Origin: Branchiostoma floridae
Lineage: Eukaryota > Chordata > Leptocardii > Amphioxiformes > Branchiostomatidae
DNA length: 64,000 nt
Assembly: GCF_000003815.2 (NCBI RefSeq)
Contig: NC_049982.1
Location: 29,174,177-29,238,176, forward strand
Reading direction: 5' to 3'
Shown in pieces: positions 9,422 through 60,690 of this stretch. Each line of letters opens with the position of its first letter. The stretch's first letter is position 1. The notes under the pieces are model-generated. The model was not told the origin of the DNA, ran no database searches, and was given only the letters and a program-made list of their open reading frames with translations. Both the position numbers and the translations under genes were made by a program.

Positions 9422-11131
9422 TCATCCCTTCAGTATGGTCACACATACGTGGTCAAACAGCCCCTTGGGCATGGTTCCCACCTGCTTAAGTGACTTGTCT
9501 TCCTGACTGAGCTGCAAAACCTTTGCTGTCCCATTGCCAGCTGTATACGTACCGTCATAACCTCCATAGATGTAAATCTCTCCACCAAAGAGAGTCATGC
9601 CACATCTTTCGAGTCCAGTCTCGGTGTTAACTATCTCAGTCCACAAGTCCTCCTCAGGCTTGTAACACAGCACATTTGATAAGCTAAGCCCAGCGACATA
9701 GATGCTACCATTGAGAACTGAAGCAGTAATATCACGAGCCCTCTCAGGCATGTTGCTTGCTGAATACCACTGAGAGTCTCCCGGGATAAAGTGGTACACT
9801 GTAGATGTGGGGCTGTCCTTGTCATCACGTCCACCCATCGTATATATGCTACCCTCCAACACTGCAACTGCATGTGTGAACCTTGGCTGTGGGAGCGAAA
9901 CACCTTTGGTCCACTTGTTCAGGCTTTGGTCATATACTTCTACATCTGCGCATGGCGTTTGGCTGATTCTTCCACCTATTGCATATACTTTTCCTCGCAC
10001 CACAGCCAGCTTGCAATAGGCCCGGTTTGTAAGCATTGGAGCAAGTTTAGACCAAGAGTCAAGCTTTGCCTGATACAGCCAAACGTCCTGACACCGCAAT
10101 CCGCCAGCCACAATAATGTCACTTATGCCCAAAACAGCCGCAGCAAATCCATGGTCATCCGTGTTCTTCATTGTGGACATAGGAATCCAGCTTTCACTTG
10201 ATGGTGTCGATGAGTGTGTCACCATAATGTCATTGCTGCAAACTGAAGCCATTCCATACTCTAATTTCTCGTACCCTGCAATGACCACCACTGCCTCCCT
10301 CAGACCACTGGCATGGCGGGGACGGGTGCGAGGTGACTGGACCTCCCCTGGGAAGGCCTGATACTTCTGAGCTTCTGACACGATATCTGGACAGCACTTG
10401 TACAGAGTCTTATCAGTCTGTACTTTCTCTATGAAGTAAATCTTGTCCATCCAGGGGAACCTAACCAGCTCCATCAGCTCTCTCATGTCCTTCTTCCTCT
10501 TCCTGGTGTCATGGTTGATCCATTTCAGGACTGCCGTATACACAGTTTCTTCGGGGGCATTAAGGTCATCTGATGAGATGAGCTTGATGACCTGGTCCTT
10601 TGTCAAGTCAAGGAACTCGGGTGTTTTGCTGGCTTCTGCAAACTCTTTCATGGCAAATGACAACGCATCTGCCTCAAGATTGGTGTTCAGCATGCCACCT
10701 AAGAGTACCATCTTCATACAGTTTTTGATACTTAGATTGTCAGATAGGAACTTTGTACATGCATCCCTGACTGGTGGAACCTGGAAGAAGTTGGCCCCTT
10801 CCATCAGTTCTGTAGCATTGTCCTCTGTGATGGTTACCTTTGACGTGTAGGCGTAGTCAACAAGAAGCTGCAAGGCACTGGGGCTGGCCTCATGAATGGT
10901 GACCTTATGCTCCTTGCTCTCACGATGTCCATTGCAGAACATTGCGCGAAAATATCCACTGCAAGCAGCGAGTACATTTCTGTGGCACGGGATCTCTTCA
11001 CCGGATACACAAAGGATGACATCTACAAGCAGGTTGTCTGATCGGAGTTCCTGCAAACCCTGCAAGAGGGCTGTTGAGTGAGTATCATGGCAGAAGTCCA
11101 ATGACGTCTGTGACCTCTGTGCTGTTGCCAT
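9422..11131 (-). CDS. KLHL24-like BTB-BACK-Kelch protein, copy 2 (intact)
   Basis: A 569-residue open frame from MATAQRSQ. This ATG was chosen over an upstream in-frame start because a 3' splice site (attgcag, exon from 11143) lies between them and all paralogues begin here. BTB is at about 20-130 (SGEEIPCHRNVLAAC, FRAMFCNGHRESKE), BACK at about 135-245 (LTKDQVIKLISSDDLNAPEE, MKEFAEASKTPEFL), and the linker SPRTRPRHASGLREAVVVI leads into six Kelch blades (VVVIAGY, IIVAGGL, YAIGGRI, YTMGGRD, YVAGLSL, YIYGGYD). Length and layout match KLHL24-type proteins. The role as a Cullin-3 adaptor is known for the family; the substrate is unknown. The Kelch C-terminus (TAKVLQLSQEDKSLKQ) groups with copy 3. 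No defect is seen, so it is likely functional. Confidence 0.92.
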   Translation of the reverse strand: MATAQRSQTSLDFCHDTHSTALLQGLQELRSDNLLVDVILCVSGEEIPCHRNVLAACSGYFRAMFCNGHRESKEHKVTIHEASPSALQLLVDYAYTSKVTITEDNATELMEGANFFQVPPVRDACTKFLSDNLSIKNCMKMVLLGGMLNTNLEADALSFAMKEFAEASKTPEFLDLTKDQVIKLISSDDLNAPEETVYTAVLKWINHDTRKRKKDMRELMELVRFPWMDKIYFIEKVQTDKTLYKCCPDIVSEAQKYQAFPGEVQSPRTRPRHASGLREAVVVIAGYEKLEYGMASVCSNDIMVTHSSTPSSESWIPMSTMKNTDDHGFAAAVLGISDIIVAGGLRCQDVWLYQAKLDSWSKLAPMLTNRAYCKLAVVRGKVYAIGGRISQTPCADVEVYDQSLNKWTKGVSLPQPRFTHAVAVLEGSIYTMGGRDDKDSPTSTVYHFIPGDSQWYSASNMPERARDITASVLNGSIYVAGLSLSNVLCYKPEEDLWTEIVNTETGLERCGMTLFGGEIYIYGGYDGTYTAGNGTAKVLQLSQEDKSLKQVGTMPKGLFDHVCVTILKG

Positions 11132-11239
11132 GGTAGTCTGATTCTGCAATAGAACACAAGCTATAAATAAGTTGTATTTCTTGACACAAGAACACCATAA
11201 ATCGATAACAAGATGTACCAAGAAAATTATTGATGGCAG

Positions 11240-11310
11240 ATTTTCACCCCATCATATAGGTCAGAAGAGGTTGTGGCTGCCACCATGGTAGCCGGATTCT
11301 GCAATATAAC
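11240..11310 (-). pseudogene. Relic 5' end of a KLHL coding exon
   Basis: On the minus strand 'atattgcag' is followed by 'aatccggctaccATGG', the same acceptor, 12-base leader and start context as the four full KLHL copies. The frame then loses similarity (MVAATTSS) and stops within 20 codons. It lies immediately upstream of copy 2, so it is probably the stub of a deleted fifth copy or a partial duplication. Confidence 0.55.
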
Positions 11311-20686: not shown

Positions 20687-22393
20687 TCACCCCTTCAGTA
20701 TAGTGACACAAACGTGGTATACCAGACCCTTGGGCATGGTTCCCACCTGCTTAAGTGATTTGTTTTCTTGATTAAGCTGCAAAACCTTTGCTGTTCCATA
20801 GCCTGAGTTGTCACAGCCTCCATAGATGTAAATCTCCCCACCAAAGACAGTCATGCCACATGCGTTTCCAATGTCAGTGTGGGTTACTACAACAGTCCAC
20901 AAGTCCTCCTGAGGCCTGTAACACAGCACTTTTGAGCGAACTCCAGCAACATAGATGCTACCATTGACAGTTGAAGCGGTGATAACTGAACCCACCTCAG
21001 GCATGTCGCTTGCTGAATACCACTGAGAGTCTCCCGGGATAAAGTGATGCACTGTAGATGTGTTGCAGTCCTTATCATCACGTCCACCCATCACATATAT
21101 GCTACCATCGAACACCGCAACTGCATGCAAGAACCTTGGCTCTGGAAGTGGAACCACTCCCGTCCACTTGTTCAAGCTTCGGTCATAGACTTCTACATCT
21201 GCTGTTACACAAACAGGTGATTGGCTAATTTTTCCACCAATTGCGTACACTTTTCCTTGCACCACTGCCAGTTTGCAATGGTCCCGGTTTGTGAGCATCG
21301 GAGCAAGTTTGGACCAGATGTCAGGTCTTGCCTGATACAACCAAACTTCCTTCCATTGAAGCCCACCAGTGGACACGATGATGTCACTCATGCCCAAAAC
21401 AGCCACAGCAAATCCATGGTCTTCAGTTCTCCTCATTGTGGTCATAGGAACCCAACTTTCACTTGATGGTGTGGAGGAGTAAGTCATGGTGATGGCACTG
21501 CTGAAACCAGAAGGGAATCCTACAAATTTCTCCTTCCCTCCAATCACCACTACTGCCTCCCTCAGACCACTGGCTATGCGGGGACGGGTGCGGGGTGACT
21601 GGACCTCCCCTGGGAAGGCCTGATACTTGCGAGCTTCTGACACGATATCTGGGCAGCACTTGCACAAGACTTGGTCAGTCTGTACTTTCTCTATGAAGTA
21701 TATCTTGTCCATGAAGGGAAATCGGACCAGCTCCATCAGCTCTCTCATCTCCTTCTTCCTCTTCCTGGTGTCATGGCTGATCCACTTCATCACTGACATG
21801 TACACAATCTCCTCTGGAGCACTGAGATTGTCTGATGAGATGAGTGTGACAAGCTGATCCTTTGTCAAGTCAAGGAACTCTGGCGTTTTGCTGGCTTCTG
21901 CAAACTCCTTCATGGCAAATGACAACGCATCTGTCTCGAGATTGGGGTTCAGCATCCCGCCTAAGGTAACCACCTTCAGACAGTTTCTGATACTTAGATT
22001 GTCTGATAGAAACTTTGTACATGCATCCCTGACCGGGGGAACCTGGAAGAAACTGGCACTTTCCAACAAGTCTACAGCGTTGTCTTCTGTGATGGTTACC
22101 TTTGACGTGTAGGCGTAGTCCACAAGAAGCTGCAAGGCACTGGCGCTGGCCTCGTGAATGGTTACCTTATGCTCCTTGCTCTCACGATGCTCATTGCAGA
22201 ACATAGCACGAAAATACCTACTGCAAGCAGCAAGTACATTTCTGTGGCACGGGATCTCTTTCCCAGAGACAGACAGGACAACATCTACCAGCAGGTTCTC
22301 TGATCGCAGTTCCTGCAAACCCTGCAAGAGGGCGATAGAGTGTGTATCTTGGCAGAAGTCAAGCGATGGCTGTGACCTCTGTGCCGCTGCCAT
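20687..22393 (-). CDS. KLHL24-like BTB-BACK-Kelch protein, copy 3 (intact)
   Basis: A 568-residue frame from MAAAQRSQ. The start is fixed by the conserved acceptor (attgcag, exon from 22405) and leader. BTB is at about 20-130 (SGKEIPCHRNVLAAC, FRAMFCNEHRESKE), BACK at about 135-245 (LTKDQLVTLISSDNLSAPEE, MELVRFPFMDKIYFIEK), then SPRTRPRIASGLREAVVVI and Kelch repeats (VVVIGGK, IIVSTGG, YAIGGKI, YVMGGRD, YVAGVRS, YIYGGCD). The order and the CGMTVFGGEIYIYGG segment agree with KLHL24. It is expected to serve as a cytosolic Cullin-3 substrate adaptor. It is intact and under visible constraint. Its closest relative here is copy 2 (shared TAKVLQL and DSQWYSAS), not the adjacent copy 4. Confidence 0.92.
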   Translation of the reverse strand: MAAAQRSQPSLDFCQDTHSIALLQGLQELRSENLLVDVVLSVSGKEIPCHRNVLAACSRYFRAMFCNEHRESKEHKVTIHEASASALQLLVDYAYTSKVTITEDNAVDLLESASFFQVPPVRDACTKFLSDNLSIRNCLKVVTLGGMLNPNLETDALSFAMKEFAEASKTPEFLDLTKDQLVTLISSDNLSAPEEIVYMSVMKWISHDTRKRKKEMRELMELVRFPFMDKIYFIEKVQTDQVLCKCCPDIVSEARKYQAFPGEVQSPRTRPRIASGLREAVVVIGGKEKFVGFPSGFSSAITMTYSSTPSSESWVPMTTMRRTEDHGFAVAVLGMSDIIVSTGGLQWKEVWLYQARPDIWSKLAPMLTNRDHCKLAVVQGKVYAIGGKISQSPVCVTADVEVYDRSLNKWTGVVPLPEPRFLHAVAVFDGSIYVMGGRDDKDCNTSTVHHFIPGDSQWYSASDMPEVGSVITASTVNGSIYVAGVRSKVLCYRPQEDLWTVVVTHTDIGNACGMTVFGGEIYIYGGCDNSGYGTAKVLQLNQENKSLKQVGTMPKGLVYHVCVTILKG

Positions 22394-22404
22394 TGTAGCC
22401 TTGT

Positions 22405-23087
22405 TCTGCAATACAAAAGCTCTTGATTAGTTCTTTACTAGACACAAGAGCCCCTCACAGTCTCAATCCAAGCGCATTGCAAGGTAATCAGAGATGGCAA
22501 ACTTTGCCCCCTCACATAGCTCAGAATAGTATAGGGAAAGCCATCTTAATCACAAAATTTGTAGTAAAGAAACCCCCTTTGGCATCATTGCCTTCATTGC
22601 TCTCTTTTGGATTCAGGATCACCCATGAAGGCCCTCATGATTAAACCAGTTCATCATGACAATAGCTACACTAAATATAACACAAATCCTGAAATGTTGA
22701 TGTAGATTAGACATCCAGGTAATAAGATACGCCAAAAAAATAGTTACTCAAGCAACTGGATATGATTTTGGAAACGGTCATATCCAGTTGCTTGTAACTA
22801 CGTTTTGGCAAAACCTGAAACGATCTACATAACAATAACACGCTGGGCAATACAAACTATTACCATGATTCGGAAACAGATTGGTGCAAAAATATGCATA
22901 GAATATGCATAGCATATTGGTATAACTGTTCAACATATCATCCCTAAAAACCTGATATCTTGAAATGATATAGAACAATCTGCCCAGTATCTAAATCATT
23001 TTGCTCATTAAGACAATATTTGCTGAAATTTGATACAGCAGTTCTATGATCACTAGTATAGTAGTAGCAACGGCAGTTTTCTCTTAC
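22405..23087 (-). other. 5'UTR intron of KLHL copy 3
   Basis: The intron lies between the candidate donor (GTCGT|GTAAGAG, exon end 23088) and the acceptor before the ATG. A 14-base inverted repeat 'actggatatgac..' / 'gtcatatccagt' is present near 22756-22795. No coding content is seen. Confidence 0.45.
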
Positions 23088-40596: not shown

Positions 40597-43500
40597 CTAA
40601 ATAATCTCCTTTCCACACAGAGTGAATCTGTCCACCTCCCTGATATCAGTTTTACTTCCCCTGTATTTCAGTTCAGTGTCTTTATCTGGCAGTTTTGTCT
40701 CTGTTTTATCATCTTTTTTCTCTTCCTGTTTCTGTGAGTCATCTTTAATACGGTCTTCACCTGTCGCCCCCTCTTGCGTTTTCTCTGAACCTCCCTTTTC
40801 CGGTGAGCGAGTTTTCCCGTGGTGCGGTTCTTTTTCCTCCTCTTTACTTTTCCTGATGTGCTGATCAGTATTTCCCTCATGCTCTTTTGCTTTAACACAA
40901 GTCTGCGCTTTTTCGTTTTCTTTTGAAGCAGTTTCCTTCGTGTAATCGTTTTTCTTTTCAGTAGGTTGCTTCTCTGGGCTTGTGTGTACCACAGGGTCTG
41001 CTCCTATGACCTCTACGGAGCTGTCGTTGCTCTGCGTGGAGGTTGGGTGGATGGAGAATGACCCTGTCCTGGTGATCTCAACGTTGGGTGGAGGGGATGT
41101 TGGGATGGGGTTGTTGAGGCTTGTTTGGCTGCCCGCCCGGCTGGCGTTCCTACTCCCCGGCCGGCTAGCCAGCTTGTTCTTGAACATCTCTGACTCTTTC
41201 ACATACTTGCAGGCATTCCCCAAGAGGACAATGCTGTTCAGCACTTTCACTGTTACAAGGCTAAGATTTAGGAAAAAAGGAAAACATGTAGCATAAGTCC
41301 ACAACTACTGACCATAGCCAATATTATTTAACCTTGTGTAGTGTAGGTATTGACTGAATAGCAAACTTTTTTCCTATAACTCCTATTTCCTTGATCAATT
41401 AACAAAATATTGTAGAAAACTGTAACAATTTACATATTTGTGCTATGAGTATTATCAGTATCAGTATCTACCGGTACATGTATATAGCTGGTCATTTTAC
41501 ACAACTTGTGATAACTAACCCTCACCCATTAAACTGCAAGCATTTTTTAAAGCTATCTAATGAGAATGCTCCTAAAGTACTTGGTGGCAATAGTAGTTAC
41601 AGTACTTGGTGCTTCCACTCAATAATATTACTTAAAACTTTATATGGAATAAGCAGATCTACATTTCATTGGTAGAAAAGTGCAGTAAGAAGAGGTATTG
41701 ACTCACGCTAAATATGTGAGGGCCAAGAGGAAGATGCCTGTCGTGCCCTGTACTTTCACCGACTTCCTAGTAATCATGTAAACCTGTGGAAACATTTTCA
41801 AAATCCACAATCACCAACATGGCCACATAACAAAATTACACATACAACACAACTCAACAAGGTTTTAAATGTATATGGGTCTTACTGCTTACAAGACAAG
41901 GAAAGACTTAGAAATGCTCTTCGTGTTAATGTGTACTCACCAGACATGTGAGGGGTAATGGGATGAAGCCCATCCTTCTGGAAACCAAATCTGAATGGTC
42001 TGAGAAAGCCTAGAAATCAAAGACACGGAACAAGTTATAACAAATACTGTACAGCAGTTAGACCAGATAAACCTAAAGCATGTTGTACAGGCATGGAAGC
42101 TCATCTGTGTTAGAGGTAATCATATACAGGTAGTATAATTATGCTAAACTTTCTTCCAACACTAATGAAACGGCCCAAGTATTCTATGATAGATTGATTT
42201 GATGATCTTATTTAGTAGCACATGATTCAAATTTTCAATGATCACAGTCGCCAATCACTTTTCGTGTACAACTTAGTGTTTGAAGAAAGTTTATCATTGT
42301 GACATGTTTTCTTGTCTTTCTACAAGGTTGTGCAAGGAAAAATTTGTTGATACTTACATTCTTCTGTCGACTGCTGATCATGTCATAAGCTAGGCTGGCA
42401 CGGTACTCATCATAGACCTACAGAGTGAGAGGGAGATAAAAAGATGGAGTGAAAAAGTGAAATAAAAGGGGGAATAGAGGGAAAATGTCAATTTAAGTAT
42501 AATACCTTTACAACTTTTCCCAACCTCAAACTGTCAATCAGTTTAGATACAAGGTGTTAGAAACAAACAAGACGAGAAATAGACTAGACTATTAATGAAC
42601 ATAGAGTACAGAATAGAATGATGTGTATATCATAATGTTAATCTATGCAGAAACTACTAGTACCAGTATACTGGTAATCAGTATCAATATTGAACAGCAG
42701 CTGTGAGTGTGAACGTTTTCTTGTAGTTCCAACTTCTTTTGCTACGGGGCATGAGCAGACCGACCAGACCTTTTGATACTGTAAATGCAGAAATTCTCGT
42801 AATGATTTTCGGTTTTCGCGTTGCCAATTCACCGCAAACCTAAAACCACCGCGAACATTTTTCCATGGCAGTAAGAGACCACAGTGCATGGTGCTACCGA
42901 GAACTTAAAACCACCGCAAAAGTCCTTTTTCCCGCTATCGCAAAATTAAATTCCTACAAACTTGAATGCCTTTACAGTATACTCAGAGGACCAGACTCAC
43001 GTCTGCAGGGATCTTGTAGTTCTAACTTCTTCTGCTAGGGGGCATGAGTATGCCAACAAGACCTTTGATATACATGTACTGAGATTGAGAGGTTTAGACT
43101 TACGTCTGCAGGGATCTCGTTGAACTTGGTAATGAAGGCATGTTTGACCCAGTCCACCAGGTACTCGGCAGCGATGATCATGGACACGTCTGGGATCAGC
43201 TGGTACAGGTGGTCTGGTGATAGGAGTGTAGAGGTTAGTGGTACAATGCACCTGGTTTAAGAATGTACTGTAACATGGTCACTATACAGGTATGGTTGGA
43301 ATTAGGGGTGGGTACTAGTACAGAAAATTCAGGTACAGAGACAGTCTCTATATCTGCCACATAGGGCACATATGTAAGGTTTACAATACTTAAAAAAAAG
43401 ATTTGGTCAGTTAAAAAAAGTATATAATACCAACCTGGGCTCCAGTTAAACTCTGTCATATTTCTCATCACCACAATGTACAGGAGAACATGGTAGTGGA

Positions 43501-46500
43501 ACCTTTCCCGGATATCTGAAACAACAAAAATATTCATCTGTCAAACCAATTATACATGTATAATTTTAAAGTAGCATTGACTTTTCAAATATTGCCCTTG
43601 AAACATTGCAGTATCTGTGATGAAAAAATATACTGTGATCCATTTTGGTGGGGTAATTATGGGAGGATATGATTTTGTACCCCTTTCCAATGAAGAAAAA
43701 ATAGTTTCCTATTTTGCCACAAGATGCATAGAGTACAAGGCTGACAATGCATAAGGTATAAAGCATAGGTATATAGTCATCCCAGCATAATCAGGGTTGG
43801 TAAAGATGCAGGGATTCTCTCTTTTTTATGACTTCTGCAGATCTGAAGTGAACCAACACAGACAATGTACCATTTGATAAACTGGACAAAGATGTACATC
43901 CTTGGATTGACTATTCATTCTGTGTTAACAGAGTGTAAAATACAGCAATTTTGTAAGGAAATTTGCAAAGATTTGCTGACTCTTGCAAACACTCGATCAA
44001 AAAAAGGTTAAGGTCGTCAGGTATTTGCCAGGGCTTGTTGGCAGTTGCTACCGGAAACACAACATATTTTTCCTAGACGTAAGAAACATAGAATATGGAA
44101 GAAAACTGATGCAATACCAGGGGTCGAAATTCATTTTTGGGATTAGGTGCACTAGTGCAACCAGATTTAAAAATTGGGTGCACCAAAAAAATTTTGGGTG
44201 CACCACTTAACTTTAAGTAATAACCTAATAACAAAACTTACTTACGAGCTATCAATCTTAAACAAGTACCATGACAGACATTTTTATTATCTTGCTAACA
44301 CTTCGATGTCAAGAATATGATGTATACTAGTATGCTTTGATATCTTTACATACATAAACCTAAGAAAATATTTGGGTGCACCCTGTGCACCCACAGAAAA
44401 TAATTGGGTGCACAGATCCAATTTTGGGTGCACCTGGGTGCACATGCACCCAGTATTTCGAGCCCTGAATACAAACAATTTTCTCATATGCCTCCTCATG
44501 AAATGAGTGCAGAGTGATACAAGGTAGCAGGCTATCTTGTAAAAGCCAATAATTTTTTACTTCACCCCTGCCAGAGGTCATCATACTGTAGCCAACTCAC
44601 AGAAGTTGCGGAAATAAGATGTACATGCGCAAAATTCAACCAGACCGAACATTGTAACCAGGGCTGTCTCCAGCTTGAATTATTCTTCCGTCCCACTAAT
44701 TGTTTGGGGGCCCATGTTGTTGATCTTCCTGGTTATATATGTCATTGTAAGCCCATGAAAGTACATTTTCAACAGTTTCTTATCATTTTTGGGACGTTTA
44801 TATATTACGTAATATAATATTTTTCGTCCCAGGAGGGAAGGATGGGTCCTGTAGACAGCTCTGATTGTAACCCAACTCTAACCTCAAGACTGGTGTATTC
44901 CCCTACCACTCTGTTTTTCTGACTCGCTGACATGCACAGAATAATTTCCATGGCTCCTTCAACTACTGTGACACCACTTTGTGCCAAAACTACTATAAAT
45001 TGACCATATATAGGGATTGCAGATAAACGCCGTGTTCTGATACTATGCATGTGGGGTTTAAACCAATAGATTGGAAAGAAAAAGCAGACAAAAGGGAAAA
45101 GAGGGTGGGAGGGGGGGTGACTCACCATTGCAAGACATTTCAAACAAGGCCTTTTTCCCAAAAGTCTTGAAGACATTTGACTGGACTTCAGCAAACTGTG
45201 AACAGTGTGTGTGAGAGAAGACAAAGAGATGACAGGGACAGATGCCATGTCTTAACTGTAACCTTAAGAGATACCAAAGACTTGCTGTCTGTTGCCATGG
45301 CCATTGCTTTGCAATTACAGGTAAACACCATGTGACGTGTCTGCTCAATTTTGTTACCATAACTCTGACTGTAAATCTTTGCAGTGGTTTCATTTTGTGT
45401 CTTAACTTGCAGAGGCCTAAATGCAAATGCACGAATATCCATTTAATGTTTCACGAACAGTACTACAGAATTTGCTTCAATTGTTCGAACCGCAAACTAA
45501 AATCCCTGCAAAAATAAATTGATCTACAGNNNNNNNNNNNNNNNNNNNNNNNNNNNNNNNNNNNNNNNNNNNNNNNNNNNNNNNNNNNNNNNNNNNNNNN
45601 NNNNNNNNNNNNNNNNNNNNNNNNNNNNNNNNNNNNNNNNNNNNNNNNNNNNNNNNNNNNNNNNNNNNNNNNNNNNNNNNNNNNNNNNNNNNNNNNNNNN
45701 NNNNNNNNNNNNNNNNNNNNNNNNNNNNNNNNNNNNNNNNNNNNNNNNNNNNNNNNNNNNNNNNNNNNNNNNNNNNNNNNNNNNNNNNNNNNNNNNNNNN
45801 NNNNNNNNNNNNNNNNNNNNNNNNNNNNNNNNNNNNNNNNNNNNNNNNNNNNNNNNNNNNNNNNNNNNNNNNNNNNNNNNNNNNNNNNNNNNNNNNNNNN
45901 NNNNNNNNNNNNNNNNNNNNNNNNNNNNNNNNNNNNNNNNNNNNNNNNNNNNNNNNNNNNNNNNNNNNNNNNNNNNNNNNNNNNNNNNNNNNNNNNNNNN
46001 NNNNNNNNNNNNNNNNNNNNNNNNNNNNNNNNNNNNNNNNNNNNNNNNNNNNNNNNNNNNNNNNNNNNNNNNNNNNNNNNNNNNNNNNNNNNNNNNNNNN
46101 NNNNNNNNNNNNNNNNNNNNNNNNNNNNNNNNNNNNNNNNNNNNNNNNNNNNNNNNNNNNNNNNNNNNNNNNNNNNNNNNNNNNNNNNNNNNACTTCTTT
46201 ACTGTAAGGTAGCATACCAGAATTGTGGGTATTTTATTTTACCTCTGTATCATTGATTAGTCCAATTTGTATTTGAATTGTAATTTCTAAAACTTCTTGC
46301 ATTGTGGTATCATAAAAAATTGGGTTGCTACATTGCCTTGATTTTGTTGGTTATTGCTAATGATTTATCAACTGGCACCAGTGTTTCAACCAAAGGCCAT
46401 GTTTTTTTTGGCTACACCTCAGGAATGGAGCCAGAAGTATCCAGAACAGCATCAGATGCAAAAAGCAGTGGACACCAGACACAAGAAGAAGAAGAAGACA

Positions 46501-49500
46501 GCAAGTCTGAGGTAAGGAGACAGACAAGGACCTCTTGAGACACGGACAGCGCACACTCACCAGCGCAAGACATCTGAAATAAGTTGTTCTTTGCAAACTT
46601 CTTGAAGACACTGCCCTTCAACTCCACAAACTGGAAAATGGAACAGAAGATTTTGACAAAGTTAGTGACATCCTCTACGAGTTTATGTATAACTGCCTCA
46701 AACTTTCTTGCACATACACGTAGCTTGCAATCACTGTTGAATTTATTACCAAACTGCACGGAGAATAAAGGACAACAAAGAAAAAAGAGAAGGACTAAAA
46801 TAAGTGAAATTAAAAGGAGAACTTCAAGGCGGACTCATAGAGCTAGACAGGAGAAGACAGAAAGAAAAGATCGTGAGAAATGAAATTTATGTATTTGTCA
46901 TTCATCAAAACTGAAGAAAAGAACTTCTGTTATTTCTCTGATAAAAAGGTCTGATTAAATCGTGCTTATAGCAGCCTGCCAACATCCAGCCAAGGAGGGG
47001 CCAGTTACAGCCCCTGACAGCAGAGTTTGAGTCACACAGTCTAATAGAAAGCAAAAACTAAATAAAATGCCACAATCAATATTTTCATCATCGCAGTAAA
47101 TATTTCTCTTTAACTTGTCACTGTATGCCACCATTTGTACTTTATAACAACAGACATTTATTCTCTTACTAGGTAATTTACAATAAAGGTCTAATTGATA
47201 AGATACTGATTATGATATAAGCAAGACGGTACAAATGTATGTCTGTGGCTAGTTTTGAAGTGTACATATACTAGCTTTACTCTCCTCATCTCTTACCGGT
47301 ATATAACAAGTTCTTATACAATCATTGAATGTACCTGTCTGACCTTCAAAGAACAATGAACAATGTTGATATGATTATCAAAAAAAAGATGCTGAACCAA
47401 TTGTACGCTGTACTCACGTTGTTGGACATCATGACGGTGAGAAGTGACTTGTTGTGGGAGTTGAAGGCCACGTTCAGACAGGTGGCCTGGAACAGCACTA
47501 ATGTGGAGTGGAGAACTGGAGGGGTGTTAAGGTCATTCACACTCTGGTGTTCTCGCTGGGCCTGTTAGGATTCCCTATGCTGTGATTTGAATCCCCTATG
47601 CTGTGATATGAATCTCCTATGCTGTGATTTTTATTCCCTTGCAGTGATTTTGATCTCCTATGCTGTGATTTTGATCTCCTATGCTGTGATTTGGATCTCC
47701 CATGCTGTGATTTTGATCCCCTATGCTGTGATTTGAATCCCCTGTCCTGTGATTTGGATTCCTTTGCTGTGACTTGGATTCCTATGCTATGATATGGTTG
47801 TAGTTGCTAGAAGCACATGGGGCAGCAAGTTTTCTTGCTGATTCATGTACTGTAGCAGGGTATACTAGTAGTTTTACAGGGACCCCATTTCAAGTCCATT
47901 CCAAAAGACAGGTGCAGCCCCAACCAAGATGGCCTGCCCAGGATTAGAAGCACTGTCCCAATTACTATTTCATTTGGATCCAGAATATCAACTGTAAGAC
48001 TGCTACTAGTTGACATACAGGGACATCTGAGTCCATAGATAACAATCATCATAATAAGAGTCAAATTGTACAGTGTCTAAAGGATACAGACATAGATGAT
48101 GGCCATGAAGAAGTGGGGGATGACACCTAAATGGTCCCTCCTCCGACCACGAGGCTCGGTGGCCGTCCAGAACAGTGCGTCCAGGATGTCCTGACCAACA
48201 GCTGAGAACAGACGGTCAGCCACCTGGAACGTAAACAAACATTTATTTATTGTGCACAACACAGCGGGCATCAAAATATTGAAACAGGAATATAAACAAT
48301 GTGGGAGAAAATATATGATCTTGCAATGATAGATTGATTCTTTGAAAGCCTGAAAAACATTGACATGTCCACACGGAACAGGATGTTGGTAACAGAGCTT
48401 TGGGTGTTTTATCTTTCTAGGCCAAGCCAAATTAATGTAGTGTCTTGGAATTACACTCCTAGAAGGAGCCAGAATGTAGAAAATCTCTTGTCATTATTAG
48501 CTTCGCCAAGAAGATTATGTTTTTGCCTGACTTGGGTCTGTATGTAGGTCAACAGGATATAACTCGAGAAATTGTGGATGGAACTTTTTTATTTTTTGCA
48601 GGTGTGTAGTGGTTGTTGAAAGGCATATCTAGTTCGAAAATGGGTTACCTGGCGTTTTCCTACGGTACAGTAGCGAGCTTGGTATTTTTTTGGTGTTTTT
48701 TCGGGAAGCATAAGTCAAAATGTAGCTGGGCGATTTCCACGATATTTGGCAGGTGTTTAGCGGTTGTGGAAAGGATTGTCATGTGCAAGAATGGTTTAGC
48801 TACCTTTTACCTATGGTGCTGTAGCTGGCTTTGTATGTTAGTGCGTTTGTCTGTATGCAAGATAACTCGAGATGTTCTTGATGCATGATAATGATATTTG
48901 GTTGATAGGTAGGGGACACAGAAANNNNNNNNNNNNNNNNNNNNNNNNNNNNNNNNNNNNNNNNNNNNNNNNNNNNNNNNNNNNNNNNNNNNNNNNNNNN
49001 NNNNNNNNNNNNNNNNNNNNNNNNTGGCGACTTGTTTTGGTACTGCCAGTGAGCATCCAAGTTTGCGCCTCAATTTCCAGAAGTGCCAGGTTCATGATTT
49101 TTTAATGGTGGATAGCTGTTGGTACTAGGAGTCAATGGTCTAATTTTGGGCCCCCTAGCAGCTTGTTTGGAACTGCAGTGGGTCTTATAGTTTGTAGCTT
49201 TTAAGAAGGATAACTGCAGAGGAGATTGATGGATATTTTTTTGTTTTTGGTAGCTAGGTACTTTGGTTGATTATCAACATCTATTTGATACAATTACTTA
49301 GGGAAAGTTATGCAATTAACAGAAATAAACAGTGTTTTCTATATACAGATGCATCTCATTTTGACCTATATTTAAGGACACAGCTGTTTGCCAGATGTTT
49401 TGCCTGAGAAGCCTTGTTACCTGGACGCCCTAACACTGTGAAAATCCTCTTGACAAGCATGAAATTCTGATTGACCAGGGATGCTACCACTGAGGTCATC

Positions 49501-52500
49501 TTTGGTCACAGTCCAATGCCCCCTATCATCAATACTATTCGGCCAGGCTGGAGTCTGGTAGAGACTACATGATTTTAACAAAGCACTATGAAAGTTGCGC
49601 TAGAAAGTATCACAACAGTGTACATAATTCCATTGTCACCAGTTGGCCAAGAAGGTTATCTTTGGTAGCATTTGTGGGTTTTTGAGGAACACAAGTTCAT
49701 GCAGTCATTTGCTATTGGGGTAGGTGCAATTTAGTAATACATGAAAAAGACCTTAAAGTATTAATAATAATAATTAAAGGCATGATTATTTGGCGAAGGG
49801 ATGTGTTCGATGAACTCTAGTTTTGTATTGATTTCAGCTGAGAAAGGATCCCAACAAACATGACTTTTCCAGAACTTTTTTTTTCAATATTGTATTCTTA
49901 TTACACAAATATCTTATTTTATTGAAATTGCAACAAGGAAATAATGCAAAGTGCATCCAAGGTAGCAATGCTGATGTTGGGTCCCATGGAACATGCATAC
50001 ATTATACAGTTGAACATTTACATATAATAAAGCAGTTGTTCATTACACTGAGAACTTTAATACATTTACGGTATCTAGTAAAAACAACTAATTAAGGCAC
50101 AAACCTCCAGCATGTTGAAGATGATGTAGAGTTTGATAATGGACTGTCCCCTGACTATAGACATTTTACGTGTCTAGTAGAAACCATAAAGACACAAACC
50201 TCGAGCATGTTGAAGATGATGTAGAGTTTGATAATGGACTGTCCCCTGACTACATGGTACAGCATGGAGGTGTCCACATAAAACAGGATGTTGGTGCACA
50301 CGATGATGATCCCTGCCTTGATCAGATCACAGATCTGGGCTGGCTCCAGTCTGGATCTGTGGCAAAAAAAAGAGTACTGGATCAAAAAACTTATTTCATA
50401 TTTCATAACTAACATAGTCTTCTACTGGCTTGTTTTCTTATTGCCTGCATGAAATATTCCTGGAGGTTATATTTTCACCAGCATTTGTGACTGTCTGTGA
50501 ACAAGATATTCCAAGAACTGCTGGATGCAGGGTTCTCCCCAGAGAGTGGAATAAGGGAGGCCCTCCACTATACTCTCAGCCAGCTCTACTATACTATTTT
50601 TCAAATTTAGTGTGGTTCTTCCCTATTTTTTTTGTTAGTTTTGCTAGAATTAATGACAATTCACAGATTTTTGTGCCAAGTGGCATCACTTTTCCAGTCA
50701 GCATTGTCTGCAAAAACTTGTGAATGAGCAATGATCAAAACAATAGTCGTTTTGCCACTTCACAACAAAGGAATAACAACAGTATATTATACTTGTAGTA
50801 TTTGACACCCTCTGTCATTGCAAAATGAACCCATTTTCATGAAAGCGCAGCGCGCTGGTGCGGGTTATATTTGCCAACCCCTCCACTATACTAAAAAATT
50901 CTGGGGAGAACCCTGTGGATGGATTAGTTTCATACTTGGTGTGTTGGTGGGGTGTGACAAATTCTGGCAATGAGTAGATTTTGGGCCACCAAGCAGCTTC
51001 CCGTGATACTGCAACGGAACTTCCAGTTTTTATATCTCGCGTTCTGAACAAGCTATGGACACGATTTTGGGGCGTTAGATGTATTGGGCTCAGGACCTAA
51101 AGGTCTGGGTTTAAAATCCTGCTGTGGCACCGATCTTTTGCCCTAGGGAAAGGTACTTTACATGACTTTTCCCACTTCACTCAGATGAAAATGAGTGCCT
51201 GGCTTCGGTTAAGGACGTCCCTTAGATGGGACGTTAAATGGAGGTCCCACGAGCCACACCTCACGCACGTTAAAGAACCCACCAGACCTTTCAAATAGAC
51301 TAGGTCAGGTCACAGGTGCCCTTGTATCTTCATTCCAACATCCCTAAACAAGAAAGACCCGGTAGTTACCTTTTCCCCTGCAGACATGGCATGGTGATGA
51401 GCCTGATGAGGGCGATGATGACTCTCAGGGGCAGGAAGGTGAAGATGAATAGGAAAGCATCCAGGCACAGGAAGAACCCATAGAACATCAGCTGTGTAAA
51501 ACAAAGACATTATATCAGGCAGGCTTTTACTAGTTTCAGCCAGGCATGCGTCAACGCGTCTTCTGGACGAACTTTTCTTAGAATAACAAGAAATTTAATG
51601 CCCCTGGACGCCCTTACAGTACAGAGAAAATCATCTGACAAGCATGAAATTCTGATTGACCAGGGATGCTACCAGGTCATCTGTGGTCACAGTCTTCTAC
51701 TGTGACCTCTGGAACAGTATTTTGGCCTCTTGGGATACCTAAGAATGCACTTTTTAAACTTAAAATCATCAAAAACTCTGCACCATGGAAGGTGGATGCC
51801 CCCAGACCCCCCTACAATAGTCACTTACCGCGACTCACCAATAAGTTTGAACTCCCTATTATAAAATCCTAGCTAAAAGCCTGATATCAGGCCACAGCAA
51901 TTAAATCTTATGGATGACATCAGCTCACTAATTTTTGCCTGGAAAGTAGTGCAAAAGAATTCTGTGTACTAATGTGGCGGTATATACGTAACAATGTACA
52001 GTGCACAATATACTCCTTCTTAACTCCAAAACCATCTTCTGGACTTTGTCTCAAGTCTTCCTTGCTTTATATCTAAGCATTAAAAAGTGTATCTGGTGCC
52101 TCCACTACATTTCAAGTGAGTGGCACAATTGATAAGATGTTTGGCCCAAACCCAGGTTCAGGTCCCAGGTTAAAACTGCCGATGTGCTCCAATGCCCCAA
52201 GGATAGGCACTTGACACCCCTTTCCTCACTTCACTCAGGTGTAAATGAGTACATTGTACCTAGATTTGGTTAGGGCCATCCCTCGGATAGGACATTACAT
52301 GGGGGTCCCATGTTTGAAAGTGCTACACCTCAAGCACTTTTAAGAACATGACATATACTTTATCGAAAATAGTAAAGGTGCTTCCCGGTGTGAGTGGATC
52401 AAACTTAATTACAGTCTGGTCTCCGGGTTGACATCTTGCAAAGGTGTTAGCCACCTGTTATGTTAATCCTTCCACGAATGTGTTAAAACTAAATCAATAA

Positions 52501-53887
52501 ATTCTTACCTTCTCAAACACCTGAGGAATCTTCATGAAGGTGTAAACTCTCTCCCTTCTCTCTGCAAACTTCTCTTCTTCATTCTCTAACAGATAACCTC
52601 TGGTCAACTCTGCCCACAGATACGTCCACAGGGGCATGTCTGAGGTGGGTCAGCAAAGAAAAGAATACTCAAATTGAGTATGACATGCATTCTGAGTGCA
52701 TCATTTCCCTCAGCAGTTTGTGTCTATGTGTCTATGTGGAATCTTTTATGGCTATGAAATAAAGTCCCCATATCATTAACGATCAGGCCTTTGGTCGGTA
52801 GCAGATATTGGGTAATTGCTGTTTTAAATTTGATAACTATTGTTGTATCTGTTACATTTTAGTGACAAATTTTAGTGCCTATGATAGAAAGCAAAACACC
52901 TCCAGATTTAGTGTTTCTTTGTTATATTGGATTTTGTGGGCATGAAATGTGCATATTTTAACACTGAATCCAATGATAATGTCTGATGGAGGTATGACTT
53001 TGTAACACCAGACAGATTTGAACCACTCATACCAGACTGTAACTCATACCAGTACGGCAGTATACCATATATTGGGGTGTAGATAGAGCATATCAGCAGC
53101 TATTAGGTCAAAATCGAATCACAGACCTTGTGACACATAATGGATATAACAGGAATGCTACCAATCAAACCATGACAAGTATAGTACATTGAAGAGAAGA
53201 GTAGAGTAGACTTATTCAGTTGAACTACTGCTATCCTAAAAGTACACGATTTAAAAGCAACTGCAAAACGTATAAGCTTTTTAAGTGTCAGTAGAAGTCA
53301 GTAGAATATCTATCATGTCTCAAAATTATACTGACACTAGTATGGAGTAATTTGAGCACATTTCTTCCGCGTCTACATGACATTTGCGTCACGTCAGGCG
53401 CAAAAATATACGTTACAACAACAAGGGCACTTCTAGGTCACTGTCATCATGGAGTCACATATCACATGTGATGATCCGGATCCCGGATTAATGTAATACG
53501 TGTCCACATACTAGAAATATTTCGTAAAATTTAAAATGTACTAAACTTGCAGATGGTTGGAATTAAATCAAATCCATCTACTTTATGTGTAGGGTTATGA
53601 TAAGTGAATACAAGTGGGTCAACTGTATCATATATCAAACAAATTTGTGACGAGACATGACAAAACTAAATATGGGGAGGGGGCAACCTGTGGACACATT
53701 TTTTATCGAAAACTTATGACTCACTGGCAATCTCTTTGACCAGTCTCTCCTCTTCGGACTCGACGTGATGTTGTTCTCCGCTAGCTCCTACATTCTCGGG
53801 CTCGGGAGCGGCGTTGTTGGTGTGAAACTCGTGCTTTGTTTCGTGCTTGTTTCCTTCGCTTCTAGTTCTAGTTCTTCTGGGCGCCAT
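40597..53887 (-). CDS. TAPT1: TAPT1 (transmembrane anterior posterior transformation 1), 13 coding exons
   Basis: A conserved multipass membrane protein linked in vertebrates to the ER/Golgi, ciliary base and skeletal patterning. Exons traced on the minus strand by GT/AG borders and frame: 53887-53725, 52639-52509, 51491-51370, 50356-50200, 48223-48088, 47515-47418, exon 7 as 46630-46561 or 45195-45126, 43515-43435, 43213-43104, 42417-42358, 42009-41941, 41783-41707, 41260-40597. They sum to 1938 nt, 645 residues plus stop. Hallmarks include ELTRGYLLENEEEKFAERRE, RGQSIIKLYIIFNMLEVADR, TEPRGRRRDHLGVIPHFFMA, LNVAFNSHNKSLLT, KHAFITKFNEIPADVYDEYR, RMGFIPLPL and the C-terminal DREVDRFTLCGKEI-like end. 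Hydrophobic segments lie in exons 3, 4, 5/6, 8 and 12/13. The start is MAPRRTRTRSEG. The tail between LLGNACKYVKE and the conserved end is Ser/Pro- then Lys/Glu-rich, longer than in human TAPT1 (567 residues as I recall). Exon 7 is duplicated. Confidence 0.93.
42776..42981. mobile_element. TA-flanked MITE with CTGTAAA ends (TAPT1 intron)
   Basis: The left end is CTGTAAATGCAGAAA and the right end TTGAATGCCTTTACAG, with TA outside both. The interior repeats 'ccgcgaac' and 'taaaaccaccgc'. Related ends or interiors appear at 29402-29465, 37085-37205, 45360-45525 and 55140-55340. A mariner-type origin is inferred. Confidence 0.55.
44118..44467. mobile_element. hAT-like MITE with 'gggtgcac' motif repeats (TAPT1 intron)
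   Basis: Ends are CAGGGGTCGAAAT and the reverse complement of CAGGGCTCGAAAT, with AATAC direct repeats outside (44113-44117, 44468-44472). The interior near both ends repeats 'gggtgcacc' seven or so times, as subterminal binding motifs of hAT elements often do. The duplication is only 5 bp, shorter than the usual 8. Confidence 0.7.
44659..44863. mobile_element. hAT-type MITE, 205 bp (TAPT1 intron)
   Basis: Ends are CAGGGCTGTCTCC and the reverse complement of CAGAGCTGTCTAC, with a perfect 8-bp duplication ATTGTAAC (44651-44658, 44864-44871), the hAT signature. Confidence 0.85.
45126..45195 (-). CDS. TAPT1: TAPT1 exon 7b (alternative)
   Basis: Borders are ttcacag|TTTGCTGAAGTCC and TGCAATG|GTGAGTC. 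It encodes FAEVQSNVFKTFGKKALFEM then SCN, plus one base. It is the same length (70 nt) and phase as exon 7a but differs at about half of its residues. Both splice sites are strong and the frame is open, so it looks usable rather than decayed. Confidence 0.85.
45530..46192. other. Assembly gap (663 N) between exons 7a and 7b
   Basis: The gap lies exactly between the two exon 7 versions. It could hide a further copy or the regulatory sequence that chooses between them. Confidence 0.99.
46561..46630 (-). CDS. TAPT1: TAPT1 exon 7a (canonical-like)
   Basis: Borders are ttttccag|TTTGTGGAG and GCGCTG|GTGAGTG. It encodes FVELKGSVFKKFAKNNLFQM then SCA, very close to the vertebrate segment (FVEIKGSVFKKF). 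70 nt, ending one base into a codon completed by exon 8 (D of DIRERF). Confidence 0.93.
47569..47795 (+). repeat. Minisatellite of about 21 bp in a TAPT1 intron
   Basis: About ten variants of 'ctatgctgtgatttgaatcc' in a row, with substitutions at the 'gaat/ggat/tgat' positions. It begins about 54 bases before exon 6 on the transcribed strand's upstream side. Confidence 0.92.
48501..49830 (+). mobile_element. Interspersed repeat family R, copy 2 (contains 100 N)
   Basis: The left end CTTCGCCAA (48501-48509) pairs with the right TTGGCGAAG (49790-49798), followed by 'gaactctagttttgtatt' as in copy 1. The interior shares 'gataactcgagaa', 'ttttgggccccctagcagct' and 'aggataactgcagagg'. The N run at 48925-49024 is inside. 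Confidence 0.65.
50105..50157 (-). pseudogene. Partial tandem duplicate of TAPT1 exon 4 with donor
   Basis: This repeats the last ~50 bases of exon 4 (QSIIKLYIIFNMLE) and its donor 95 bp downstream, including intron flank ('acattt.acg..tctagta'). On the minus strand the copy is preceded by 'gtctatag', which could act as an acceptor. Reading through from exon 4 hits a stop (after KCL) before the copy. Confidence 0.85.
50440..51085 (+). mobile_element. Interspersed repeat family R, copy 3 (interrupted)
   Basis: It matches copy 1 from 'tggaggttatattttcacc' to 'ctcgcgttctgaacaagcta', but is split by the 388-bp element at 50528 and cut off where a SINE begins near 51080. Confidence 0.65.
50528..50915. 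mobile_element. 388-bp MITE with CAGGGTTCTCCCCAGA ends
   Basis: The 16-bp terminal inverted repeats are perfect. TGGATG is directly repeated on both sides (50522-50527, 50916-50921). Removing the element and one TGGATG restores the sequence of family R copy 1 (ctggatggattagtttca against ctgggtggattggtttca), which proves insertion. Confidence 0.92.
51080..51320 (+). mobile_element. SINE-like repeat, copy 1
   Basis: A B-box-like 'gggtttaaaatcc' is followed by 'cacttcactcagatgaaaat' and a tail with GGGACGTTAAA, GGTCCC and 'cacgttaaagaaccc'. It is shared in part with 52110-52345 and 56335-56480. The tail resembles conserved SINE tails of marine animals. Family naming needs a database. Confidence 0.6.
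51885..51990. mobile_element. Solo family H MITE end
   Basis: 'aggccacagcaattaaat' and 'ttatggatgacatcagctca' align with the left end of family H. No matching right end is seen. Confidence 0.4.
52110..52345 (+). mobile_element. SINE-like repeat, copy 2
   Basis: It shows 'caggttcaggtccc' (B-box-like), 'cacttcactcaggtgtaaat', 'ggataggacattacatgg' and 'caagcacttttaagaac', parallel to copy 1. It lies in a TAPT1 intron. Confidence 0.6.
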
Positions 53888-56979: not shown

Positions 56980-57482
56980 ACCTTCACTCATTAAATATCG
57001 CAAAGCATACATGTGGAAGTGAACACTTCAGTTGTTTTTTCCTTTTACATGGGACAAAATTGTCAGTCATCAAAACAACAAACATGCATGTTTGAAACTG
57101 AAAAATGGCCTCTTTGAAAACAGACAACTTTTTTCATTGAATTTTGTTTCACATACTCAAAGACATAGACATGTTAGAGATCTGAAAAAGTTGTCAAAAT
57201 TACAATGATTGCTTTAAGTGTCATTAGCATAAAGTATAATGTACATTAATTTTTCAGGTCTCAACTATTAGTGTTTGGGTTTTTGTCACATTTTTCTACT
57301 TTGTGGTATAAGGTTCCTATCCTTTCTTCTGACTACAGCATACAATTTATTTTGATTTGAAAAGATACTTTAAAAATCTAATTTTGGATAAACAATAATT
57401 CACTACACAGGGTTGTGCAATCAGGTCGCTGACTACTGCCCCTCTTGCCTGGAGTTCGAGACAAGTCAATCAAATCGTCAAC

Positions 57483-58226
57483 ATGGCGGAAGAAGTGTTT
57501 CCAATCCACGAAGCTGACAGCATGCTCTCACAATCTTCAGACGAGCTTTTCAAGCAGTACCCGCGCTCTGAAGAGGTCATCCGAGTGATTTGCAACGAAG
57601 ATGAACTTAAAGCAGCGTGGACGCTACGCGACAAGTGTTTTCCCGCGGACGAGTACGTATCGCTGGAGAGGTACCAAGAGCTCTACCGTGCGGCCCCGCA
57701 TCTCTTTTTCGGTTACTTCGACGGGGATAAAGTGCGAGGGTTTCTTCGCGGGGCGAGCCAGAAGGCCGACCACTTCGCTCCAGATTCCATAGGTACAGGA
57801 AATGTACATGACCCGGATGGTGAAACAATGGTCCTACATTTACTGTGTGTGGAGGAACAGTATAGAAGAAGGGGAATCGGCCAAGGGCTCATGAAAGCCT
57901 TCATCGATTATGTGAAAGCGAAGGAAACCAAGGTGAAGAGAATCATCCTCATCTGCCATGCAGAGCTCATCCCAGTCTACACCAGGGTGGGCTTCACCTT
58001 GGTCGGGAGGGCGGAGGTCAAGTTCGGGAAGCGGTCGTGGTACGAGTGTTGCCTGGACCTCACCACGTATGACTCGGCGGTGGCTGACGACGCTTTCCAG
58101 TCCAAATACGTCTCCATGACAACTGACAATGTTCCCGTGACAACGGGCAACGCCAACGGATCCACCATTTCCGTGGAGAGTGAAGAAGAGTTCGAGGAAC
58201 TCAAGGCTCTAGACTACAGTGATTGA
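57483..58226 (+). CDS. AANAT-like GNAT acetyltransferase 1
   Basis: A 247-residue frame from MAEEVFPIHE, the first ATG after a 3' splice site at 57410. The GNAT fold is clear: VLHLLCVEEQYRRRGIGQGL holds the acetyl-CoA loop (R/QxxGxG, about 128-133), then HAELIPVYTRVGFTLVG with Tyr166 at the place of the catalytic tyrosine of arylalkylamine N-acetyltransferase. His119 is the only histidine where vertebrate AANAT has two. The FGKRSWYEC ending is like the non-vertebrate AANAT type. Residues 1-30 and the acidic tail after 200 (EEEFEELKAL) are extra; no PKA/14-3-3 regulatory sites of the vertebrate enzyme are evident. It probably acetylates arylalkylamines or polyamines; the true substrate is not known. 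AANAT gene expansion has been reported in amphioxus. The coding region is G/C-rich and unbroken. Confidence 0.9.
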   Translation: MAEEVFPIHEADSMLSQSSDELFKQYPRSEEVIRVICNEDELKAAWTLRDKCFPADEYVSLERYQELYRAAPHLFFGYFDGDKVRGFLRGASQKADHFAPDSIGTGNVHDPDGETMVLHLLCVEEQYRRRGIGQGLMKAFIDYVKAKETKVKRIILICHAELIPVYTRVGFTLVGRAEVKFGKRSWYECCLDLTTYDSAVADDAFQSKYVSMTTDNVPVTTGNANGSTISVESEEEFEELKALDYSD

Positions 58227-59738: not shown

Positions 59739-60198
59739 TATGCTGTAGAGTTTTCTGTGCTTCTCTTATTCTACTTAATGGTACTTTACTTTGCTTTTAT
59801 TTGTCTATTCACACAAGTTATATAGCCTTACAAATGTTAATGTAAAACACAGTGCAGTGTGGATTGATTTCTCATATGCAAATGTATGTATACTTTTTTT
59901 CTGCAAAGTAACATGATCACAATTATTTGTTAATATAACAAAATGACATTGTAAATGTGTAATTATTCTTTATGGTAACAATGACAACTTACTGGTAATG
60001 CAATATACTCAACTATGTAGCAAGACTTCTTGTGCAAACATTTATTCAAACCTTATGATGGGTATTAAAGTAAGTATGACAGTTATGGTTGTGTGAGGCA
60101 TTGTATTTTTCCCTTGGCTGTTTTTCAGAGTACCAGACTGAAGCCTTCAGAATTGAAATTACTTCAGATCGTAACAGTCAACTTCAAACCGCCGAGAC

Positions 60199-60690
60199 AT
60201 GGCGGAAGGGAACGTACGGCCGCTCCAGTGTGGCGAGGAAGTTGAGCAAGCTTCTATACTGGAGTACGCTGGGTATCCAGCAGACGAGGCCGCGTCGTTA
60301 GACACCCTACAGGCGAGACACACCGCAGAGAGCCGGCTCTTCATTGGCTACTTCGAAAACGAAAAGCTGTTAGGTTTCGTCTGTGCCACGAGCACTGATG
60401 CAGATCGCTTAACCGAAGAGTCCATGCACACCCACATACCTCATGGTGAAACAATCTGCATACATTCTGTATGTGTTGACCAAGGTGTACAGCGTCAAGG
60501 AATAGCGACTAAACTACTGAAGGAGTTTGTTCACAAAGTGAAAGGTAGTTTTCCCGAGGCTAAGAGAATATGTCTGCTATGTCACGAGTATCTGATCCCT
60601 TTGTACACCAAGGCAGGGTTCGTTCTAGTCGGGCTGTCAGAAGTTGTGCACGGTAAAGAACCGTGGTATGATTGTGTTATGGAGTTATGA
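60199..60690 (+). CDS. AANAT-like GNAT acetyltransferase 2
   Basis: A 163-residue frame from MAEGNVRPLQ, after a 3' splice site (ctgtttttcag, exon from 60129); the upstream exon was not identified. CIHSVCVDQGVQRQGIATKL gives the acetyl-CoA motif (QRQGIA, 98-103) with His89, and HEYLIPLYTKAGFVLVG carries Tyr136 in the catalytic position. HGKEPWYDC near the end is typical of non-vertebrate AANAT. It lacks the N-terminal extension and acidic tail of gene 1 and is close to a minimal AANAT domain. AATAAA follows at 60715-60720, 25 bases beyond the stop, a good polyadenylation signal. The tandem head-to-tail pair implies local duplication, but the two differ at most positions, so the duplication is old. 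Confidence 0.9.
   Translation: MAEGNVRPLQCGEEVEQASILEYAGYPADEAASLDTLQARHTAESRLFIGYFENEKLLGFVCATSTDADRLTEESMHTHIPHGETICIHSVCVDQGVQRQGIATKLLKEFVHKVKGSFPEAKRICLLCHEYLIPLYTKAGFVLVGLSEVVHGKEPWYDCVMEL

What the first reader, a model, noticed from the sequence alone, without database searches (positions are those of the whole stretch)
45126..46630. TAPT1 has two interchangeable versions of exon 7 whose joint use would cause an immediate stop
Exon 7a (46561-46630) and exon 7b (45126-45195) are both exactly 70 nt, start in phase 0 and end one base into a codon, with strong acceptors and donors. Their proteins align without gaps but differ at about half of 23 positions; 7a resembles vertebrate TAPT1. 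As 70 is not a multiple of 3, including both gives G + TT TGC TGA, a stop two codons later, and skipping both also shifts the frame. This is the layout of a mutually exclusive exon pair. It changes a segment just before a hydrophobic stretch, so it may tune a loop of the membrane protein. I know of no report of this in TAPT1.
Basis: partly seen in the sequence, partly recalled or inferred. Interest (0 to 1): 0.82.

Follow-up and report, generated by a model that had tools for sequence, protein, structure and literature searches.

The report
Duplicated swappable exon in TAPT1 gene
A membrane-protein gene of an amphioxus-like animal carries two old, well-kept versions of one exon, of which a working message can hold only one, so the animal probably makes two forms of the protein; it is a known kind of gene switch, in a gene where I found no report of it.

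Summary
On the minus strand lies a clean TAPT1-type gene (Pfam DUF747). Exons 7a (46630-46561) and 7b (45195-45126) are both 70 nt, phase 0 in, one base out, bordered by AG and GTGAGT. Either gives an intact 645-aa protein; both, the reverse order, or neither gives an early stop. 7b is the only good match to 7a in the window, the only same-length spliceable look-alike found beside any of 11 internal exons, and its peptide matches only 7b and 7a in the 513-Mb genome. 47/70 bases and 12/23 residues agree, flanking introns show no similarity, and 7b keeps more of the DUF747 pattern than simulated neutral change leaves. So 7b looks like an old duplicate under coding selection. Best reading: a mutually exclusive exon pair, with frame disruption and message decay as backstop. 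No RNA data or second species could be reached, so use of 7b is inferred. Corrections: the 7b acceptor is only middling; steric and U2/U12 mechanisms do not apply; a 17-of-19-bp helix in the intron between the exons is suggestive only. New member of a known kind.

The parts
40597..53887 (-). TAPT1-type gene, coding part: 13 exon positions, 645 codons with either exon 7
   Evidence: exons joined and translated; DUF747 PF05346 387.6 bits with 7a, 369.6 with 7b
47418..47515 (-). exon 6, shared, ends on a codon border
46561..46630 (-). exon 7a, 70 nt, FVELKGSVFKKFAKNNLFQMSCA + 1 base; the more family-like version
45126..45195 (-). exon 7b, 70 nt, FAEVQSNVFKTFGKKALFEMSCN + 1 base; the diverged version
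43435..43515 (-). exon 8, shared, completes the split codon (D) after either exon 7
46496..46514 (-). intron arm 1, 46 nt after the 7a donor, complementary to arm 2 (17 of 19); role uncertain
45272..45290 (-). intron arm 2, 76 nt before the 7b acceptor; role uncertain
45530..46192 (.). 663-N assembly gap in the intron between 7a and 7b; could hide a further copy

Best explanation
An old tandem duplication of exon 7 left this TAPT1 gene with two coding versions of the same 23-residue segment, used one at a time. Shown from sequence: both fit the shared exons 6 and 8 exactly, and a message with both or with neither has an early stop. Inferred: such messages are removed by nonsense-mediated decay, so that only single-exon messages make protein; 7a, with the stronger acceptor and the family-like sequence, is the default form; 7b, with the weaker acceptor and pyrimidine-rich (PTB-like) motifs in the intron before it, is the regulated form, perhaps helped by a helix that folds the intron between the two exons. 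The swap would keep the fold and change side chains of a membrane-near segment (11 of 23; two lysines lost, K5 and K11 of the exon, one gained at position 15), and so alter a contact of this ER membrane protein.
For: Two intact 645-aa isoforms; 7a+7b, 7b+7a and the skip all stop, with 6 junctions after the 7a+7b stop and 5 after the skip stop. 7b is unique as a match to 7a in window and genome. Neutral change of 23 bases yields an open copy with at least 12 identities and score 65 in only 17 to 185 of 20,000 runs over six settings. DUF747 score of a 120-aa piece: 7a 181.4, 7b 163.5, five neutrally evolved open copies 145.3-155.7, five shuffles 114.1-124.9. pS 0.64, pN 0.27. Strong donors on both. 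The intron of 1365 nt rules out crowding.
Against: No transcript evidence, no second species and no population data. 23 codons hold only 12.5 silent sites, so the selection estimate is rough. The 7b acceptor is weaker than that of 7a. The intron helix is 1 of 13 introns tested and intron 10, which has no exon pair, holds a stronger one; no docking/selector pairing was found. RBFOX-like motifs are not enriched.
Confidence: 0.68

Rival explanations
1. Both exons are used, but the choice is not regulated: the splicing machinery picks either at random, sometimes both or neither, and decay of the out-of-frame messages alone makes the pair look exclusive.
For: Frame logic alone would suffice; no convincing control element was found.
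Against: An unregulated second version would have little reason to keep 11 replaced yet family-like residues; inference only.
Confidence: 0.13
2. 7b is chiefly a poison exon: adding it after 7a makes an early stop and lowers output of the gene; its protein sequence is not the point.
For: 7a+7b stops after three codons of read-on and would be decay-prone.
Against: A poison exon need not keep the exact length, the phase into exon 8 and the family pattern of 23 residues, which 7b does.
Confidence: 0.08
3. 7b is a dead relic of an exon duplication, no longer spliced.
For: Weaker acceptor; lower family score than 7a; 43-55% of neutral runs stay open by chance, so openness alone proves little.
Against: Open, exact length, both splice sites kept, 12 of 23 residues and mostly mild replacements kept despite pS 0.64; such a result is rare in neutral runs.
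Confidence: 0.08
4. Assembly artefact: 7a and 7b come from two haplotypes or two genes joined across the 663-N gap.
For: The gap does lie between them.
Against: 7a is contiguous with exon 6 and 7b with exon 8. One DUF747 gene is found: 9 of 10 matches at E up to 10 lie in it, the tenth (C18, 22.4 bits) is under the cut-off of 25 and by eye unrelated. The 7a region and the two sides of the inner intron match only themselves as DNA; the 7b peptide matches only 7b and 7a; a DNA search with 7b itself did not complete. Alleles would not differ at a third of exon bases with unlike introns.
Confidence: 0.02

Closest known systems
FGFR exons IIIb/IIIc, including the single amphioxus Fgfr gene (PMC5703972, passages)
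   Same: Two versions of one segment from a tandem exon duplication; [quoted passage not shown]
   Different: Extracellular receptor domain and Esrp control; an extra amphioxus exon IIIx can be joined with IIIc; here no RNA data and another gene
Human mutually exclusive exon clusters with lengths not divisible by three (PMC5740500, passages)
   Same: Joint inclusion shifts the frame; the paper counts 377 of 629 clusters of this type, with exon-joining reads in 83 of the 377
   Different: Those were checked against RNA reads; TAPT1 did not turn up with this paper in my search for TAPT1 with 'mutually exclusive' (main texts only)
Predicted mutually exclusive exons of the WebScipio/Kassiopeia kind (PMC3923563, passages)
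   Same: Meets the sequence rules: similar length, same frame, splice sites, similarity above 15% of self-score
   Different: The passages and abstract start name flies, thale cress and a worm; 'Branchiostoma' does not occur in that paper
Insect Dscam docking-site/selector clusters (PMC6071210, introduction and results)
   Same: Tandem exon duplicates; long-range intron pairing conceivable
   Different: Two exons only; no pairing of outer with inner introns beyond shuffles; the one helix lies inside the inner intron

Membership tests
Tandem-duplicate mutually exclusive exon pair | Same or similar length | tested here: met
   70 and 70 nt
Tandem-duplicate mutually exclusive exon pair | Same reading frame and phases with the flanking exons | tested here: met
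   645 codons open with either
Tandem-duplicate mutually exclusive exon pair | Compatible splice sites | tested here: met
   AG and GTGAGT on both; 7b acceptor middling
Tandem-duplicate mutually exclusive exon pair | Sequence similarity (15% of self-score by the published default) | tested here: met
   55%; threshold
Tandem-duplicate mutually exclusive exon pair | Exactly one of the two in mature messages | not testable with these tools
   no RNA data; sequence shows only that both or neither stops
Exclusion by frame shift and nonsense-mediated decay | Length not a multiple of three; early stop upstream of further junctions | tested here: met
   70 nt; stop with 6 (both) or 5 (neither) junctions downstream; decay itself not tested
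Exclusion by steric hindrance | Very short intron between the exons (donor to branch point under 50 nt) | tested here: not met
   1365 nt including 663 N
Exclusion by U2/U12 incompatibility | Mixed U2 and U12 sites at the pair | tested here: not met
   donors of exons 6, 7a and 7b match the U12 consensus at 2, 3 and 2 of 9 positions
Docking-site/selector control | Competing pairings of one outer-intron site with inner-intron sites | tested here: inconclusive
   5 of 6 intron-part pairs no better than shuffles, the sixth (inside the inner intron) 1 of 60; 663 N unread
TAPT1 / DUF747 (PF05346) | Match above the Pfam cut-off of 25 bits | tested here: met
   387.6 and 369.6 bits

The most novel reading that the evidence does not exclude
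TAPT1, usually treated as a one-form ER membrane protein, has in this lineage an ancient two-state switch: a regulated splice choice, set in part by a helix in the intron between the two exons, exchanges the segment next to a transmembrane helix and so changes which partner or client the protein holds.
Probability: 0.15. Interest if true: 0.62.

Novelty: new member of a known kind. Interest (0 to 1): 0.42.

Why it matters
If 7b is used, the pair is a natural exchange experiment: evolution kept the family pattern of TAPT1 while changing 11 of 23 residues of one segment, which marks a part worth testing in a protein whose action is poorly understood and whose loss causes a progeroid bone disease in people (PMC9906387, start of abstract and passages). 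It also adds a case, in an animal close to vertebrates, for asking how exon exclusion is enforced.

Tried and rejected
Chance resemblance: rejected. A second TAPT1 gene or haplotype copy: none found. The C18 hit of the DUF747 search (L009, 22.4 bits, cut-off 25) was read and by eye dropped as unrelated; neighbouring loci L010-L012 were fetched but not read. A mobile element with the two intron arms as its ends: the stretches that hold the arms match only themselves in the genome, so dropped, with the tool's warning that very common words are skipped. Docking/selector pairs: of six intron-part pairs only the inner-intron pair stood out (1 of 60 shuffles; 1 of 300 on the intron ends), 1 of 13 introns tested, and intron 10 did better (0 of 300) (hairpin). 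A first duplex test used a program that strings helices together: 0 of 100 shuffles on the short stretches but 4 of 100 on the longer ones, and no excess in the four other pairs; not relied on. TGCATG: 2 in the intron after 7b against 0.98 expected; YCAY not enriched. PTB-like motifs: 8 against 1.6 in the inner intron, 4 of them in one TCT repeat, 4 against 1.8 before 7a, 2 against 3.7 after 7b. No solved relative: best E 0.58, judged unrelated. One scan of viral contigs with a TAPT1 piece found no relative. A search for the FGFR2 intron stem found no paper.

Full report
What is there. On the minus strand 13 exon positions from 53887 to 40597 join into one open frame of 645 codons. The genome search with DUF747 gave 10 matches at E up to 10: nine in this gene, among them 7b itself (profile 124-148, 16.7 bits), and one on C18 under the cut-off that by eye is unrelated.

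The pair. 7a (46630-46561) and 7b (45195-45126) are each 70 nt, start in phase 0 and leave one base. With either the protein has 645 residues. 7a then 7b ends in MSCAVC*; 7b then 7a stops later; neither stops in exon 8. The 7a+7b stop lies 62 nt before the next junction with 6 junctions downstream; the skip stop 33 nt with 5 downstream. That such messages decay in this animal follows from general knowledge of NMD, not from a call.

More than chance. Against 7a, 7b scores 65 (self 118); the next best of 123,668 windows scores 28, and the maximum of 100,000 shuffles of the 7b peptide is 49. Rules like those published for predicting such exons (same length, AG..GT, open) applied to the introns beside 11 internal exons (7b itself not used as query) gave 71 AG..GT windows, 12 of them open; only 7b passes 15% of self-score, at 55%. 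The script allowed equal length only, so copies of other length would be missed, and the gap is unread. A genome-wide search with the 7b peptide gave two matches at E up to 10: 7b and 7a.

Old and selected. The exons differ at 23 bases, 6, 7 and 10 at codon positions 1, 2 and 3; pS is 0.64 and pN 0.27, on only 12.5 silent sites. Flanking introns are 28-34% identical over 50-200 nt and 32-40% over 25 nt, that is, near chance. Neutral change of 23 bases leaves the frame open in 43-55% of runs, but open with at least 12 identities and a score of at least 65 in 17 to 185 of 20,000 over six settings. In a 120-aa piece DUF747 gives 181.4 (7a), 163.5 (7b) and 101.8 (exon removed); three hand-typed scrambles gave 109.9-118.6. 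Five machine shuffles gave 114.1-124.9 and five neutrally evolved open copies 145.3-155.7, so 7b lies above both sets, but these are small. Ten of the 11 differences placed singly in 7a (the last, at position 23, left out) change the score by +0.1 to -3.9 bits, most for K11T and K5Q. So 7b reads as a legitimate family segment and 7a as the more ancestral-looking one.

Splice sites. By a small matrix of the gene's own 11 other sites, donors score 9.15 (7a) and 9.31 (7b), top 0.3% of GTs; acceptors 7.38 (7a, top 2%) and 1.04 (7b, top 20%); 3 of 11 other acceptors score below 7b. One of the donors in the matrix is the U12-like one of intron 5. Default 7a and regulated 7b is inference from this.

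How exclusion may work. Steric hindrance fails (1365-nt intron); U2/U12 incompatibility fails. Frame and decay fit; a human survey counts 377 of 629 clusters with such lengths and exon-joining reads in only 83 of the 377 (PMC5740500, passages). RNA pairing: 46514-46496 and 45290-45272 pair at 17 of 19 positions, 46 nt after the 7a donor and 76 nt before the 7b acceptor; 1 of 300 shuffles of the intron ends reaches the score. With 13 introns tested this is weak, intron 10 does better with no exon pair, and a survey found outer introns tending to pair with inner ones but not inner introns with each other (PMC6071210, results). The likeness to a stem in the FGFR2 intron between IIIb and IIIc is recalled; a search for it found no paper. 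PTB-like motifs number 8 against 1.6 expected in the inner intron, half of them in one simple repeat.

Protein. Exon 7 codes residues 270-292, after a hydrophobic segment ending at 254; the hydrophobic segments called are the same for both forms, and the first 18 residues of the exon have charge +3 (7a) and +2 (7b). For human TAPT1 a figure legend gives five predicted transmembrane helices, and the text enrichment in ER/Golgi fractions (PMC9906387, passages). What the swap does is unknown; a changed contact is my guess.

Known or new. 'TAPT1' with 'mutually exclusive' is in 9 papers: I saw passages of one, which names mutually exclusive exons as an event class, and title and abstract start of eight. 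With 'Branchiostoma' 1 paper, on gene order; with 'homologous exons' 0; with 'exon duplication' 0. 'Amphioxus' with 'mutually exclusive exons' gives 8 and 'Branchiostoma' with 'exon duplication' and 'alternative splicing' 11, of which I saw passages of two and the rest as listings. Supplements could not be searched, so a table may already list the exon. Verdict: a new member of a known kind, well supported by sequence, untested in RNA.

Noticed in passing
47516-48087 (minus strand, intron 5 of the TAPT1-type gene): Looks like a U12-type (minor spliceosome) intron just upstream of exon 6: donor GTATCCTTT matches the recalled consensus at 9 of 9 and GACCTTAAC the branch-site consensus at 7 of 9, ending 10 nt before exon 6; no other of the 13 introns has more than 5 of 9 at the donor.
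   Followed up: partly
50091-50157 and 50186-50252: The tail of exon 4 with its donor is tandemly duplicated (67 nt, 96%, spacing 95). Read on from exon 4 to the second donor, the frame meets TAG first, so it is not a usable longer exon.
   Followed up: partly
42141-42165 and 42273-42297: A 25-nt, 92% complementary inverted repeat inside intron 10 of the gene, stronger than the helix between 7a and 7b; possibly a small mobile element remnant.
   Followed up: no
4484-27164 (minus strand): A tandem array of long intronless BTB-BACK-Kelch (kelch-like) frames: two checked with Pfam (9425-11251 and 20690-22426), others alike by eye, one interrupted by the 665-N gap.
   Followed up: partly
57399-58226 and 60175-60690 (plus strand): Two neighbouring single-frame GNAT acetyltransferases, alike by eye, probably a tandem pair.
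   Followed up: partly
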